Source: Coriobacteriia bacterium (GTDB taxonomy: Bacteria; Actinomycetota; Coriobacteriia; Anaerosomatales; SLCP01). Taken from it: a stretch of DNA of 33,879 nucleotides. Where the stretch lies: NCBI GenBank assembly GCA_019429145.1, contig JAHYJI010000012.1, positions 1 through 33,879 on the forward strand, in the 5' to 3' direction. The stretch's first letter is position 1. Every line of letters starts with the position of its first letter. The translations under genes were made by a program, and so were the position numbers. Shown here in pieces: positions 190 to 6,232 of this stretch. Under the pieces are notes generated by a model. That model did no database searches, had not been told where the DNA came from, and saw nothing but the letters and a program-made list of their open reading frames with translations.

Positions 190-1566
190 ATGCAACACAT
201 ACCTGTCACGTGCGAGCAGCGCGAGGCTATGCTTCGCTCGGTGGGGTGCTCGGAGATGTCCGAGCTGTTCAGCGACGTCCCCGATGAAGTGCGCCTCAAC
301 CGCCCGCTCGAGATCGAGGGCGGCCTGGGGGAGATGGAGCTCGTCGCGCACGTTCGCGGGCTGGCCGACGCGAATGAGCCTGCGTCGGGACTGGTAAGTT
401 TCGCAGGTGCCGGGTGCTACGACCACTACGTGCCCTCCATCGTCGACCACGTCGTGCGCAGACCTGAGTTCTTCACGGCCTACACGCCCTACCAGCCCGA
501 GGTGAGCCAGGGCACGTTGCAGGCGATCTACGAGTACCAATCGATGATCTGCGCTCTGACCGGCATGGAGGTGGCGAACGCCTCGATGTACGACGGAGCC
601 ACGGCGCTCACCGAGGCCGCGCTGATGGCGTGCCGCGTGACCCGCCGGCAGCGCGTCGTGTGCGCCGGCACCGTGCACCCCGAATGGCGACACACGCTTG
701 CCACGTACGCCGCCGCCGGCAACTTCGACGTGACCTTCCTGCCCCCCGCTGCTGCTGGCGGGGTGGCGATCGCGGGAAGGGAGGCGGAGGTGAGTTCGGC
801 GCTCGAGGGAGGAGACGTCGCGGCACTCCTGCTGAGCAGCCCCAACATCTACGGGAACCTCGAGGACGTCGCCGCCGCGGCGAGAGTCGCTCACGACGCG
901 GGCGCGCTGCTCGCCGCCGGAACCAACCCGCTGCTTCTCGGCGTGCTCGAGGCGCCGGGGATACAGGGTGCGGACATCGTGGTCGGGGAGGGGCAGCCGC
1001 TCGGAAACGCGATGAGTTTCGGCGGTCCGGCCTTCGGGTTCTTCGCCTGCCGCGAGGCGCACATGCGCCACATGCCGGGCCGGCTCGTCGGCAAGACGGT
1101 CGACCTGGACGGTAACCGGGCGTTTGTCTTAACGCTTTCCACTCGTGAGCAGCACATACGTCGCGAGAAGGCGACGAGCAACATCTGCAGCAACCAGGCC
1201 CTGTGTGCGCTTGCAGCGGCGGTCTACCTGAGTGCCGTTGGTCGCGAAGGGCTCGTGGCAACCGCCACGGCGTGCATCGAGAAGGCGCACTATCTGCGGA
1301 GCCGCCTGCTCGAGACGGGACGATTTGTTGCGCCGTGGGAAGCGCCGTTCGCGCACGAGTTCGCACTCCGCTACGAAGGCGACGTCGCTGCCATGCACGC
1401 CGCACTGTTCGATCGCGGGTTCGTGGCCGGGGTGCCGCTCTCCCGTCTCGACCCGATGGTGGGCGATTCGTCCGGGAACGGGGACGACCTCGTTCTGTTC
1501 GCGGTCACCGAGAAGCGAACGCGAGCCGAGATGGACGCGTTTGCCGAGGAGGTGGGCGCGCTGTGA
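190..1566 (+). CDS. gcvPA: Glycine dehydrogenase (decarboxylating) subunit 1
   Basis: N-terminal half of the split P protein. With subunit 2 it decarboxylates glycine and passes the aminomethyl group to lipoyl-GcvH. The 458 residues match the usual length for this subunit. Family segments include ELFSDVP near residue 24, the [13 protein letters not shown] motif near 72-84, [22 protein letters not shown] from about residue 96, and SNICSNQAL near 330. As expected, this subunit carries no PLP lysine. ATG at 190 has GAGGAGG from the gcvH 3' end about 11 bases upstream. It overlaps gcvPB by four bases (GTGA), implying translational coupling. A split P protein rather than the fused form is common in Firmicutes, archaea and deep-branching actinobacteria. 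Confidence 0.97.
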
Positions 1567-3059
1567 CCGAGAAGCTCACACACACTCCCTCACACGCGCC
1601 GTCGCGTGGTCCCCGCAGCCTCATCTTCGAGACCGGCGCCCCGGAGTCGCGTTGCGTGATGCCTCCCGCGCCTGACGTCCCGGGGATCGATCTCGACGAG
1701 GCTCTCGGCGGTGCGCTTCGCGCCGAGCCGCCGCTTCTGCCTCACGTCACCGAGGTGGAGATCGCGCGGCACTACTCCCATCTTGCCTCTATGAACTTCG
1801 GTGTGGACTCCGGGAGCTACCCGCTCGGCAGCTGCACGATGAAGTACAACCCGCGGGTGAACGAGGACGCCGCACGCTACGAGGGGTTCGCGGGACTGCA
1901 CCCCTACCAACCTGTCGACTCCGTTCAGGGCGCTCTCGAACTGATGGTCGAGCTGGCCGCAGACCTGGGCGAAGTAGCGGGTCTGCCCGGTGTGACGCTC
2001 CAGCCGGCAGCCGGTGCGCACGGCGAGCTTACAGCCCTGATGTGCTTCCGCGCCTACCATGTCGACAGGGGAGACGCGCGCAGGAAGGTGATCATCCCGG
2101 ACTCTGCCCACGGCACCAACCCCGCCACGGTCGCGATGTGCGGCTACGAGGTGGTCACGGTTCCGAGCGACGAGCACGGCGGCGTGGACATGGAGGTGCT
2201 GCGCGCGGCGCTCGACACGGACGTCGCAGCGTTCATGCTTACGAACCCCAATACGCTCGGGCTGTTCGATCCCAACATCCTCGCGATCACCGATGCGGTG
2301 CACGCAGTGGGCGCGCTCGCATACTGCGATGGGGCGAACCTGAACGCCATCATGGGCATCTCGCGTCCCGGAGACATGGGATTCGACGCGCTTCATATCA
2401 ACCTGCACAAGACCTTCTCTACTCCTCATGGAGGCGGTGGGCCGGGAGCCGGCCCGGTCTGCGTGACCGAAACACTCGCCCCGTATCTCCCGGGACCGGT
2501 GCCCTACCGCCGGGGTGACGGCACGTACGACCTCGCCGAGCCGGCGCTCTCCATAGGCCGCGTCCGGTCGTTCTACGGCAACTTCGGGATCCTGGTTCGC
2601 GCGTACACGTACCTGCGTGCGCTCGGAGGTTCCGGGCTGCGAGAGGTGAGCGAGCAGGCGGTGCTGTCCGCGAACTACCTCAAGGAGCGCCTACGGGAGG
2701 CCTACGACCTTCCGTACGATCGGACGTGCATGCACGAGTTCGTGCTCTCGGGCTCGCGCCAGAAGCGCGAGAACGGCGTGCGCACGCTCGATATCGCCAA
2801 ACGCCTGCTCGACCACGGTTTCCACCCGCCGACGGTCTACTTCCCGCTCATCGTCGAAGAGGCGCTCATGATCGAGCCCACGGAGACGGAGTCCCTCGAG
2901 GAACTCGACCGGTTTGCCGATGCGATGCTTGCCATAGCGAAGGAAGCCGCGGCAGACCCCGATCTCGTGAAGGGCGCGCCCTACACCACGCCCGTTCGCA
3001 GGCTCGACGAGGCAGGTGCTGCCCGCAAACCCGACCTTCGCTATCGCCCGGAGGAGTGA
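1563..3059 (+). CDS. gcvPB: Glycine dehydrogenase (decarboxylating) subunit 2
   Basis: PLP-bearing half of the split glycine decarboxylase, 498 residues, normal for the family. The Schiff-base lysine is K283 in [16 protein letters not shown], followed by the glycine-rich loop typical of P proteins. Other conserved segments are [15 protein letters not shown] and the DSAHGTNPA motif. The GTG start at 1563 overlaps the gcvPA stop and gives the sensible N-terminus MTEKLTH; the same frame stays open further upstream, but there it lies over gcvPA. It is followed at once by a lipoyl-transfer gene, which fits a self-contained glycine cleavage and lipoylation operon. gcvT and the L protein are not in the window. 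Confidence 0.97.
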
Positions 3060-3064
3060 ACCCG

Positions 3065-3889
3065 TTGGGTGGTGCCTGGCGTCTCATCGTCGAGGACGCC
3101 CCGTGCACGGGTTCGTGGAACATGGCGGTCGACCGCGCGGTGCAGCTCGCCCGCGCTGCAGGGTCGGTCCCGGCTACGCTGCGCATCTACTCGTGGATCC
3201 GCCCGACCGTCTCGCTCGGTCGGTTCCAGGACGTTGCCGGTCTCGACAGGGACTTCTGTGCCGGGCACGGCGTGGATGTCGTCAGACGCTCGACCGGGGG
3301 CAGGGGAGTCCTGCACGATGACGAGGTGACGTACTCGCTGGTGGCATCGGTCGACGACGGCGTGCCCCGAGGAGTCGCGGCGTCCTACCGGCACCTGTGT
3401 GCCGGGCTTGCGGAGGCCTACCGTTTGCTCGGCGTTCCTGCCGAGTTGACCAGGCGCACGCGTGGAGACGGAGCGTCGGCGGCGTGCTACCTGCACGCGA
3501 CCCCTGCCGATCTCTCGGTCGGAGCCCGCAAACTGTCCGGCAGCGCGCAGGTCTGGGAGGGCACGACGGTCCTGCAACACGGATCGTTCACGATCACCCG
3601 CGACCTTGCCGCCGAGTCGGCCATCTTCTGCCTCGATGAGGACGCACGGCGCTCGATGGTTGACAGCACCGCGACCCTCGCCGACCAGCTCGGCTACGCC
3701 CCGGAGCGTCAGACGGTGATCGATGCAGTCATCAGGGGCTTCGAGCGGGGCCTCGGTATGACCTTCGTCCAGGGAGATCTGACCGCAGACGAGAGGGAGT
3801 GCGCACGCAATCTCGAGAGCAGAGCGCTCGAGCGGGGTATCGAGGGTGTGGAACGTGTGCGGAATACCTCGGGTTTGAGTGAAGGTTGA
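3065..3889 (+). CDS. lipM: Lipoate-protein ligase A / octanoyltransferase (LipM-like)
   Basis: Biotin/lipoate transferase-fold enzyme that places octanoyl or lipoyl groups on carrier proteins, here presumably GcvH. Seen: RRSTGGRGVLHDDEVTYSLV (ligand-binding loop), the active lysine in GARKLSGSAQ (K156) and a cysteine in AACYLH (C141), placed like the acyl-thioester cysteine of LipM octanoyltransferases. This makes LipM more likely than ATP-dependent LplA, but family placement by alignment would decide. Start choice: an in-frame GTG at 3056 overlaps the gcvPB stop but abuts the ribosome site GGAGGAG (3049-3055). TTG at 3065 sits at a proper distance and gives MGGAWRLI, so it is preferred. Length 274 residues. 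Confidence 0.85.
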   Translation: MGGAWRLIVEDAPCTGSWNMAVDRAVQLARAAGSVPATLRIYSWIRPTVSLGRFQDVAGLDRDFCAGHGVDVVRRSTGGRGVLHDDEVTYSLVASVDDGVPRGVAASYRHLCAGLAEAYRLLGVPAELTRRTRGDGASAACYLHATPADLSVGARKLSGSAQVWEGTTVLQHGSFTITRDLAAESAIFCLDEDARRSMVDSTATLADQLGYAPERQTVIDAVIRGFERGLGMTFVQGDLTADERECARNLESRALERGIEGVERVRNTSGLSEG

Positions 3890-3971: not shown

Positions 3972-4277
3972 GTGGGCGACAGCAGGTACGATGATGTGCT
4001 GATCGATCTCGAAGGTAAGAGCAACGACGAGCTACGCGCCGTCCTCAATGAGCTCTACGAGGAGGAGCAGAAGATCTCCTACCGGCGTCGGGTCCTTCAC
4101 GGCAAGATCGATATCTTGAGAGCCGAGCTCGTGAGCCGTCTGAAGGGTCAGCGTGAGGGCGGTGGCGACGTCATCTCCGGCGGGGACGTCGAGCGCCTCA
4201 TCGAGATCCTCGCCAGTGACCTGCGCGGCGTCTCGAATATCGACGTGGCCGAGTCGCTCGGCGACGAGGACGAGTAA
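3972..4277 (+). CDS. RsiG-like small protein with a c-di-GMP-binding-type helix motif
   Basis: A 101-residue, mainly helical protein. Its central helix (about 18-60) carries E32-x3-S36-x2-R39-x3-H43-x3-D47. This is the signature reported for RsiG, the anti-sigma factor that holds WhiG when bound to c-di-GMP (E-x3-S-x2-R-x3-Q-x3-D), with Q replaced by H. Only one copy is present, as described for Rubrobacter-type RsiG that works as a homodimer; streptomycete RsiG has two. The tail (about 70-100) is a second short helical region ending in acidic residues. The frame is open upstream to 3879, but GTG 3972 has the purine-rich GAAGGGGG about 9 bases upstream and lies after the promoter, so it is preferred. 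First gene of the run to apt. No sigma-factor gene is in the window, so the partner is unknown. Confidence 0.7.
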   Translation: MGDSRYDDVLIDLEGKSNDELRAVLNELYEEEQKISYRRRVLHGKIDILRAELVSRLKGQREGGGDVISGGDVERLIEILASDLRGVSNIDVAESLGDEDE

Positions 4278-4319: not shown

Positions 4320-4580
4320 GTGCCCACACTCGCAGAGAAGCTGCAACGATTCATGGACGAGCTGGCTACCGACGCGGTCGAGGAGCGCGTGGTCGAGTAC
4401 GTCATCCGCGAAGTCCAGAACGGCCGCAAGTTGAGCGAGGCGCTGAAGGACCCCTACGTCAAGAACCGCCTGAGCGAGGAGAAGCTCGCGAAGGTGCTCG
4501 AGGCCCCGGAGGTCGTCAGCGCGCTCGAGGCCCAGATCACGGCGTCCTTCAAGAAGCAGGAGTTCGGCTTCTCGGAGTGA
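4320..4580 (+). CDS. Small helical protein of unknown function
   Basis: An 86-residue protein that I do not assign to a family. GTG start at 4320 has a strong AAGGAGG (4309-4315) at good spacing. The sequence is all-helical in appearance: an amphipathic helix about 3-33, then short charged helices to residue 77 and an aromatic tail QEFGFSE. No signal peptide, membrane segment or cysteine. It lies 42 bases after the RsiG-like gene and 37 before the FHA gene, in the same direction, so it belongs to that operon. A role linked to those signalling proteins is only guilt by association. Confidence 0.8.
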   Translation: MPTLAEKLQRFMDELATDAVEERVVEYVIREVQNGRKLSEALKDPYVKNRLSEEKLAKVLEAPEVVSALEAQITASFKKQEFGFSE

Positions 4581-4617: not shown

Positions 4618-5073
4618 ATGACGACATGTCCGGTGTGCGGAGAGCACCTCGAAGAGCCTCGTCCTGCCGAGTGCCCGGCGTGCGGCGCGCGTCTCGAAGG
4701 CCCTACCGAGGCGTTCTCACCGGTAGGATCCGAGGCGGATCGCGTTGCAGAACTCCCCGCCACCGACCTGTCTACGGGGCCGGTACTCGTGGTCCGCAAG
4801 GGCCCCGAGGTTGGAGAACGCTTCTTCATCGATCGCCCGACCCTCGCTGTCGGCCGCGGCCCGGAGTGCGACATCTTCCTCAACGATTTCACGGTCTCCA
4901 GAAGCCACGCAGTTCTCGAGATGGCTGGTGATGAGGTCTCCGTGCGCGACGCGGGCTCCCTCAATGGCACCTACGTCAATGGTGTGCGGGTCGACAAGGC
5001 GCAACTCTCAGACGGCGACATCCTGCATATCGGCAAGTTCCAGATGGTCTTCATGAACCGCGGAGGAGCGTGA
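4618..5073 (+). CDS. Zinc-ribbon plus FHA-domain protein (GarA/OdhI-like position)
   Basis: A 151-residue cytoplasmic protein. Residues about 4-27 hold two CPxCG knuckles (CPVCGEHL and CPACGARL), forming a zinc ribbon. After a linker, residues about 58-150 form an FHA domain with the phosphothreonine-binding elements GRGPECDI, SRSHAVLE and SLNGTYVNG. FHA domains bind phosphothreonine peptides. Its location directly before ftsR and near gcvH mirrors actinobacterial garA/odhI, whose product switches off 2-oxoglutarate metabolism when unphosphorylated. However, the N-terminal phosphorylatable ETT-type motif of GarA/OdhI is not seen; the zinc ribbon occupies that place. The target is therefore uncertain. 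It shares four bases with the upstream GTG reading of ftsR. Confidence 0.9.
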   Translation: MTTCPVCGEHLEEPRPAECPACGARLEGPTEAFSPVGSEADRVAELPATDLSTGPVLVVRKGPEVGERFFIDRPTLAVGRGPECDIFLNDFTVSRSHAVLEMAGDEVSVRDAGSLNGTYVNGVRVDKAQLSDGDILHIGKFQMVFMNRGGA

Positions 5074-5078
5074 GCCCC

Positions 5079-5786
5079 ATGGCGACACGTGACTACATGA
5101 CGATCGGCGAGGTCGTCGAGACGCTTCAGCCGGCATACCCGGACCTCTCCATCTCGAAGATCCGCTTCCTCGAGGAGGAGGGCCTGATCTCGCCGGAGCG
5201 GACCTCCGGCGGATACCGGAAGTTCTCGCAGCACGATCTCAACCGCGTCGACATGATCCTGCGGCTGCAGAAGGAGCACTTCCTTCCGCTCGCCGTCATC
5301 CGCGAGAAGCTCGCGGATTTCGACAAGGGCAAGGTACCGCCCGAGCTCACCGGTCCGGGACCGACCGGGACCGAGCCGGTAGCGCTGCCGTTCGAGGAGG
5401 CCGAACCCGTCACCCTTGACGACGTTCCCGCCGCACTCGGCCTGCCTGCGTCGTTCGTGCGGGAACTCGCCGAGTTCGCGCTCGTCGAGATCGTCAACGG
5501 CGAGCATGGCGAGGAGATCGGACCTGTAGACGTGCGTATCGCACATGCCGCCTGGGACCTGAGGCGCTTCGGGATCGAGCCGCGTCATCTACGCATGTAC
5601 GAGACGTTTGCCGAGCGCGAGGCCGCCTTCTTCGGGCAGGCGCTGACGCCGGCCTTCCGCCACCGCACGCCTGAGACCAGACAGAAGCTTGTGGAGACCC
5701 TCGGCGAACTGACCGGTCTGACCGGCGACCTGAAGAGCCACCTTCTCAGACGGGCACTCGGGCGGGTGTTCGAGGACGTCGTGTAG
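5079..5786 (+). CDS. ftsR: MerR-family transcriptional regulator FtsR
   Basis: DNA-binding regulator matching the actinobacterial FtsR family, which controls the cell-division gene ftsZ in corynebacteria. The winged-helix N-terminus is distinctive: LQPAYPDLSISKIRFLEEEGLISPERTSGGYRKFS, then QKEHFLPLAVIREKL. Residues about 85-110 form a Pro/Gly-rich linker. The C-terminal part is a helical effector or dimer domain that lacks the cysteines of metal-sensing MerR proteins. Start: GTG 5070 overlaps the FHA stop but is only three bases from GGAGG. ATG 5079 gives MATRDYMTIGEV and is chosen, although its spacing is long, so the call is not firm. Length 235 residues from ATG. Gene order FHA-ftsR is conserved in actinobacteria. 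Confidence 0.88.
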   Translation: MATRDYMTIGEVVETLQPAYPDLSISKIRFLEEEGLISPERTSGGYRKFSQHDLNRVDMILRLQKEHFLPLAVIREKLADFDKGKVPPELTGPGPTGTEPVALPFEEAEPVTLDDVPAALGLPASFVRELAEFALVEIVNGEHGEEIGPVDVRIAHAAWDLRRFGIEPRHLRMYETFAEREAAFFGQALTPAFRHRTPETRQKLVETLGELTGLTGDLKSHLLRRALGRVFEDVV

Positions 5787-5791
5787 GAAGC

Positions 5792-6232
5792 ATGGCAGAG
5801 CACACTACACACGATCGCGCTGCGGGGCCTTCCGGCCCGGATCGCGAGACCATCGAGTTCGCGCATCCCAGCGAGCGGGTTGCGGCGGAGATACTCGACT
5901 TCTACCGCATCCGCTGGGAGTACGAACCGACGACGTTTCCCATCGAGTGGGACGGGGAGGGGAGGGTCGTCGCGTCGTTCACTCCCGACTTCTATCTGCC
6001 CGACTTCGATCTCTACATCGAGCTCACCACCATGAGCCAGAAGCTCGTCACAAAGAAGAATCGCAAGGTCAGACGGCTGAAGGAGCTCTATCCCGAGGTG
6101 AACGTGAAGATCTTCTACCAGAAGGACTTCCGGATGCTGCTCGCCAAGTACGGAGTGGGCGTGTCGGAACAACCGCTGTCCCGCGGCGGCGGGCTCGCGC
6201 CGGGCGCCACCTCGTCTGAGGACGAGCGGTGA
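5792..6232 (+). CDS. Conserved protein with a PD-(D/E)XK nuclease-like core
   Basis: A 146-residue protein I cannot name with certainty. It contains FAHPSERVAAEIL (a possible early acidic residue), then TPDFYLPDFDLYIELT followed by a lysine-rich helix (KLVTKKNRKVRRLKELYP) and a VKIFY strand. The spacing D...ExT...K resembles the PD-(D/E)XK/restriction-endonuclease-like fold found in DUF559-type proteins. No target-recognition domain or methyltransferase partner is nearby, so a restriction role is unlikely. The last 20 residues look disordered. It starts 5 bases after ftsR (ATG 5792, GGAAG just upstream) and overlaps hpt by four bases, so it is firmly in the operon. Confidence 0.75.
   Translation: MAEHTTHDRAAGPSGPDRETIEFAHPSERVAAEILDFYRIRWEYEPTTFPIEWDGEGRVVASFTPDFYLPDFDLYIELTTMSQKLVTKKNRKVRRLKELYPEVNVKIFYQKDFRMLLAKYGVGVSEQPLSRGGGLAPGATSSEDER

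What the first reader, a model, noticed from the sequence alone, without database searches (positions are those of the whole stretch)
3972..4277. Single-motif RsiG-like c-di-GMP sensor heading a signalling operon
The 101-residue protein carries E-x3-S-x2-R-x3-H-x3-D in its main helix. This is the c-di-GMP-binding signature described for the streptomycete anti-sigma factor RsiG, with the glutamine replaced by histidine. One copy per chain suggests a homodimer holding the ligand, as in Rubrobacter. Its neighbours are an FHA protein and FtsR rather than a sigma factor, so it may control a different output, such as division or metabolism.
Basis: partly seen in the sequence, partly recalled or inferred. 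Interest (0 to 1): 0.75.

Follow-up and report, generated by a model that had tools for sequence, protein, structure and literature searches.

The report
Single-motif RsiG anti-sigma factor, Anaerosomatales
The 101-residue protein is an ordinary single-motif RsiG, a known kind of c-di-GMP-sensing brake on the sigma factor WhiG, found in an order of mostly uncultured subsurface bacteria where it has not been described, and it most likely switches type IV pili on and off rather than cell division or metabolism.

Summary
Window 3972-4277 (+) encodes 101 residues with E32-x3-S36-x2-R39-x3-H43-x3-D47, the only such motif in six frames. The protein belongs to Pfam PF22802 (RsiG; 70.7 bits, cut-off 27). 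It is a true family member, and His instead of Gln is common: a His-bearing RsiG (Conexibacter) is reported to bind c-di-GMP.

The "different output" reading is not supported. The same genome encodes a WhiG equivalog (375 bits, cut-off 343) on another contig. In 300 genomes of the class, RsiG (65/69) and WhiG (66/69) pass their cut-offs only in this order (Anaerosomatales), and in 0/231 others. The FHA-FtsR neighbours say little: rsiG-fha-ftsR is conserved in 78/80 named relatives, including Thermoleophilia.

The predicted output is type IV pili. WhiG-type promoters (at most 2 mismatches) precede the major pilin in 52 of 59 genomes (about 1 expected), and also some pilB and GGDEF/EAL genes. 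The window's own assembly breaks just after pilB, so its pilin promoter could not be read; three congeners have it.

Verdict: new member of a known kind. It adds a class (Coriobacteriia) and predicts pilus control testable in cultured Anaerosomatales.

The parts
3972..4277 (+). rsiG: single-motif RsiG, 101 aa, GTG start
   Evidence: PF22802 8.3e-20, 70.7 bits, cut-off 27; phmmer to AmfC/RsiG 6pfj 6.3e-10 and Rubrobacter RsiG 7lq2 9.6e-9
4065..4112 (+). c-di-GMP motif E-x3-S-x2-R-x3-H-x3-D (E32, S36, R39, H43, D47)
   Evidence: direct sequence; only match in six frames of the window; invariant in alignment A1
4320..4580 (+). 86-aa ORF of unknown function between rsiG and fha
   Evidence: conserved in most Anaerosomatales loci; no Pfam family; all-helical model pLDDT 82.7 with no significant PDB match
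4618..5073 (+). FHA protein, closest to OdhI/GarA (below the curated cut-off)
   Evidence: PF00498 2.7e-20; NF041660 OdhI 114 bits, cut-off 200
5070..5786 (+). ftsR, MerR-type regulator
   Evidence: NF050798 FtsR 208.5 bits, cut-off 150
1560..3889 (+). upstream gcvPB and lipoate-ligase-like genes (conserved flank; identified by eye, not scanned)
   Evidence: order gcvPB-lplA-rsiG-orf86-fha-ftsR present in relatives' loci

Best explanation
The gene encodes the Anaerosomatales orthologue of single-motif RsiG. Two chains pair through the long helix as an antiparallel coiled coil. The two E-x3-S-x2-R-x3-H-x3-D motifs hold a c-di-GMP dimer, and the loaded (RsiG)2-(c-di-GMP)2 complex sequesters the WhiG sigma factor encoded elsewhere in the genome. 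When c-di-GMP falls, WhiG is released and transcribes from TAAA-N15/16-GCCGATA promoters, chiefly the major type IV pilin and some pilus and c-di-GMP turnover genes. Shown here by computation: family membership, motif, presence of WhiG and of GGDEF proteins, joint distribution of RsiG and WhiG, and the promoter association with pilin genes across the order. Inferred from the Rubrobacter and Conexibacter work: dimerisation, ligand binding, WhiG sequestration and the direction of control.
For: RsiG family. All five motif residues invariant. His-motif RsiG of Conexibacter binds c-di-GMP (Kd 25 uM; 1.7 uM with WhiG): PMC8325347. 12 GGDEF matches in the genome. WhiG equivalog 375 bits (cut-off 343) and best PDB match Streptomyces WhiG 1.9e-91. 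The K-x3-G-R residues that contact c-di-GMP in WhiG are present as KYVAGR in 30 of 31 order WhiG loci, including this genome's. RsiG over cut-off in 65/69 order genomes and 0/231 others; WhiG 66/69 and 0/231. Pilin upstream regions: 52/59 with at most 2 mismatches, 51 of them 58-86 nt before the start, against about 1/59 in Markov shuffles and 3/59 on the other strand, 0/30 upstream of rsiG and 0/29 upstream of whiG. Tight pattern 89 hits against 3 for the reversed pattern in 69 order genomes (counted from its list). Other downstream genes: PilB-type ATPases with MshEN, GGDEF and GGDEF-EAL proteins. Long helix 18-62 at pLDDT about 90.
Against: No binding, dimer or expression data for this protein. 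The window's own assembly ends about 350 nt after pilB (contig C53) and has no pilin match, so the own-genome promoter was not seen; the few own-genome matches were not near a pilus gene. Four order genomes lack an RsiG match, three of them 64-73% complete and one 91%. Foldseek of the monomer model gave no significant PDB match, as expected for a lone helix but not a confirmation.
Confidence: 0.83

Rival explanations
1. The protein has been re-targeted: it senses c-di-GMP but acts on its neighbours (FtsR or the FHA protein), linking c-di-GMP to division or carbon metabolism.
For: rsiG, fha and ftsR are contiguous and co-oriented in 78 of 80 named loci over several classes and in the order's loci, so co-expression is plausible.
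Against: The odhI/garA-ftsR pair is a general actinobacterial cluster with variable genes upstream (PMC6683498); the same neighbourhood occurs in Thermoleophilia, where RsiG of Conexibacter binds WhiG (PMC8325347); RsiG and WhiG share their distribution.
Confidence: 0.06
2. RsiG acts on the other alternative sigma factor in the genome, a SigB/F-type protein (contig C53), instead of or besides WhiG.
For: The genome has a SigB/F/G-type sigma (L010, 286.6 bits to TIGR02980, cut-off 234.35).
Against: A 134-aa ORF just before it looks like an RsbW/SpoIIAB-type anti-sigma (by eye); weaker SigB-like matches also occur outside the order where RsiG is absent; all structural precedents are RsiG-WhiG.
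Confidence: 0.04
3. RsiG-WhiG pair as in the best explanation, but the main output is not type IV pili (for example mostly c-di-GMP enzymes or sensor proteins).
For: WhiG-type sites also precede GGDEF, GGDEF-EAL, CheB and histidine-kinase genes and some genes unrelated to pili; the own-genome pilin promoter was not seen.
Against: The pilin is the one gene with the site in most genomes (52/59).
Confidence: 0.1

Closest known systems
Single-motif RsiG of Rubrobacter radiotolerans (PDB 7lq2-7lq4) and Conexibacter woesei (PNAS 2021, PMC8325347)
   Same: One motif per small chain, one long helix, WhiG in the same genome, flagellar-type promoters at type IV pilus and DGC/PDE genes; His in the motif as in Conexibacter
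   Different: Class Coriobacteriia rather than Rubrobacteria or Thermoleophilia; extra 86-aa gene between rsiG and fha; no binding data
Twin-motif RsiG (AmfC) of Streptomyces venezuelae, PDB 6pfj
   Same: Same motif and helix; WhiG partner
   Different: Two motifs in one monomer; controls sporulation (PMC8325347)
odhI/garA-ftsR cluster of Actinobacteria (PMC6683498)
   Same: FHA protein followed by ftsR
   Different: Region upstream of odhI varies there; here that place is taken by rsiG, and the next genes are a 146-aa ORF and hpt

Membership tests
RsiG (PF22802) | Profile score above the curated cut-off | tested here: met
   70.7 bits, cut-off 27
RsiG (PF22802) | E-x3-S-x2-R-x3-[Q/H]-x3-D motif | tested here: met
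   nt 4065-4112; invariant in A1
Single-motif RsiG | Only one motif, no second helix equivalent to alpha5 | tested here: met
   101 aa, one motif; model helices 4-11, 18-62, 70-85
Single-motif RsiG | WhiG encoded in the same genome | tested here: met
   NF004935 375 bits, cut-off 343; only one RsiG in the genome
Single-motif RsiG | Antiparallel homodimeric coiled coil | not testable with these tools
   Only a monomer can be predicted; the long helix is present
Single-motif RsiG | Binds c-di-GMP, and WhiG in a c-di-GMP-dependent way | not testable with these tools
   Needs a binding assay; shown for relatives
Type IV pilus regulon as in Rubrobacter | Flagellar/WhiG-type promoters at pilus genes | tested here: met
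   Met for the order: 52/59 pilin genes, three congeners among them. Not readable in the window's own genome (contig break)

The most novel reading that the evidence does not exclude
RsiG in these bacteria is a hub: besides holding WhiG it also binds the neighbouring FtsR or FHA protein (or the 86-aa protein), so that one c-di-GMP sensor co-ordinates pilus production with division or carbon metabolism. The persistence of rsiG-fha-ftsR over several classes would then reflect function.
Probability: 0.06. Interest if true: 0.75.

Novelty: new member of a known kind. Interest (0 to 1): 0.42.

Why it matters
The 2021 study reported single-motif RsiG only in Rubrobacteria and Thermoleophilia. Finding it with WhiG and with pilin-linked promoters throughout a Coriobacteriia order suggests that c-di-GMP control of type IV pili is the older role of this switch and spore control in Streptomyces the later one. 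Cultured Anaerosomatales are non-motile and bear many pili-like appendages, and in Parvivirga these appear only with insoluble ferrihydrite (PMC9686372). The RsiG-WhiG switch is a concrete, testable candidate for that control. Mechanistically it is what the known family predicts, so the surprise is moderate.

Tried and rejected
Chance motif: rejected (single match in six frames, order-wide conservation). Different output because of FHA/FtsR neighbours: rejected as an argument, since the neighbourhood is shared with Thermoleophilia and odhI/garA-ftsR is an old actinobacterial pair. His-for-Gln as a novelty: rejected, already described and shown to bind. WhiG-type promoter for the rsiG operon itself: none (0/30 loci within 2 mismatches; matches in the window at or little above chance and not upstream of rsiG). 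Own-genome regulon: pattern searches gave two sites near no pilus gene; uninformative because of the contig break. The tight pattern in the rest of the class also gives hits, many of them repeated in one genus; only the order was compared with the reversed pattern by count, and hits outside it were not tested for position near genes. Foldseek of the RsiG monomer gave nothing significant. Whether fha-ftsR stays together without rsiG elsewhere in the class could not be tested: no FtsR over the cut-off in the sampled family.

Full report
What is there. The ORF at 3972-4277 (+) encodes 101 residues with the motif E32-x3-S36-x2-R39-x3-H43-x3-D47 at nt 4065-4112, the only such match in the six frames of the window. 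It scores 70.7 bits to Pfam PF22802 RsiG (cut-off 27). By sequence it matches the solved RsiG proteins of Streptomyces (6pfj, 6.3e-10) and Rubrobacter (7lq2, 9.6e-9). It is the only RsiG in a 2.07-Mb, 98.5% complete genome. The AlphaFold model has a 45-residue helix (18-62, pLDDT about 90) carrying the motif, a shorter helix (70-85) and a low-confidence tail.

Where it comes from. The order belongs to Coriobacteriia. Other single-motif hits are labelled Coriobacteriia, Solirubrobacterales/Thermoleophilia, Candidatus Aquicultor and Candidatus Subteraquimicrobium. H stands at the Q/H position in 78 of 80 of these loci. The published survey (673 Actinobacteria; PMC8325347) named single-motif RsiG only in Rubrobacteria and Thermoleophilia, noted that H often replaces Q, and measured c-di-GMP binding by the H-bearing Conexibacter protein (25 uM alone, 1.7 uM with WhiG). 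No paper in the library holds both RsiG and Coriobacteriia.

The partner. The genome has three proteins with Sigma70_r3. The one on contig C83 (L011:1171-1938, 255 aa, between a tyrosine-recombinase-like ORF and an rpsB-like ORF by eye) is a WhiG equivalog (NF004935, 375 bits, cut-off 343), and its best solved match is Streptomyces WhiG (1.9e-91). The K57/G61/R62 contacts to c-di-GMP described for WhiG correspond to K37/G41/R42 of this protein in the alignment, and the same KYVAGR is found in 30 of 31 loci. In 300 genomes of the class, RsiG passes its cut-off in 65 and WhiG in 66. By the kinship column, every one of these lies among the 69 genomes of the order and none among the 231 others.

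The neighbourhood. gcvPB-lplA-rsiG-orf86-fha-ftsR recurs in the loci fetched from the order. rsiG followed by fha and ftsR is seen in 78 of 80 named loci, the two exceptions lying near contig ends. Thermoleophilia keep rsiG-fha-ftsR without the 86-aa ORF. FtsR and odhI/garA are neighbours throughout Actinobacteria, with variable genes upstream of odhI (PMC6683498). So the absence of a sigma gene next door is normal for this branch of the family and gives no reason to propose another output.

The output. A WhiG-type pattern (TAAA-N15..17-CCGATA) searched in the order hit repeatedly upstream of one gene, the major type IV pilin (start MRMFRKDEGFTLVELMVV). The pilin was then sought by protein, independently of promoters, and the 250 nt upstream of the best pilin per genome were scanned. 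52 of 59 have a site with at most 2 mismatches to TAAA-N14..17-GCCGATAA, 51 of them 58-86 nt before the start. Markov shuffles give about 1 of 59 and the opposite strand 3 of 59. Upstream of rsiG it is 0 of 30 and upstream of whiG 0 of 29. A tighter pattern gives 89 hits against 3 for the reversed pattern in the 69 order genomes (counted from its list). Other genes behind such sites include PilB-type ATPases with the MshEN domain, GGDEF and GGDEF-EAL proteins, CheB and a histidine kinase, close to the Rubrobacter picture of pil and DGC/PDE genes. In the window's own genome, contig C53 ends about 350 nt after a pilB-like gene and no pilin is assembled; the congeners G106, G118 and G054 all have pilin and site.

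Mechanism and confidence. The best-supported explanation is c-di-GMP-armed sequestration of WhiG by an RsiG homodimer, controlling type IV pili. Membership in RsiG is near certain. WhiG as partner is very likely. Pilus output is likely for the order and inferred for this genome. Dimerisation, binding and direction are taken from the published homologues.

Why it could matter. Cultured Anaerosomatales are non-motile with many pili-like appendages, and Parvivirga forms them only with ferrihydrite (PMC9686372). This makes the switch testable in culture. The finding is a new member of a known kind with a useful extension of range and a specific prediction.

Noticed in passing
window 4320-4580 (+): 86-aa protein family (E-E-R-x3-Y ... 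G-R ... D-P-Y-V-x-N-R) between rsiG and fha, conserved over Anaerosomatales and, at 35-41% identity, in Aquicultor-like loci; no Pfam family, helical model, no significant fold match.
   Followed up: partly
window 5792-6232 (+): 146-aa ORF between ftsR and hpt, 65-97% identical in relatives, with no Pfam or NCBIfam match; its stretch PDFYLPDFDLYIEL looks like a PD-(D/E)xK-type nuclease by eye.
   Followed up: no
L133 9671-11347 (G000:C53): pilB-like type IV pilus ATPase gene about 350 nt from a contig end; pilin and following genes are missing from the window's assembly.
   Followed up: yes
G003, G005, G008, G041, G054 contigs: rsiG and whiG lie on one contig about 74-75 kb apart in several genomes, a long-range conserved spacing.
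   Followed up: no
L095, L101: PilB-type ATPases behind WhiG-type sites carry MshEN, a domain known to bind c-di-GMP in MshE (own knowledge), suggesting a second layer of c-di-GMP control of pili.
   Followed up: partly
G031 family (11 genomes): No FtsR over the NCBIfam cut-off in a neighbouring family of the class, so FtsR seems lost or diverged there along with RsiG and WhiG.
   Followed up: no
L257 (G054:C44): A second, tandem pilin gene also has its own WhiG-type site, TCAAGT-N15-CCGATA.
   Followed up: partly
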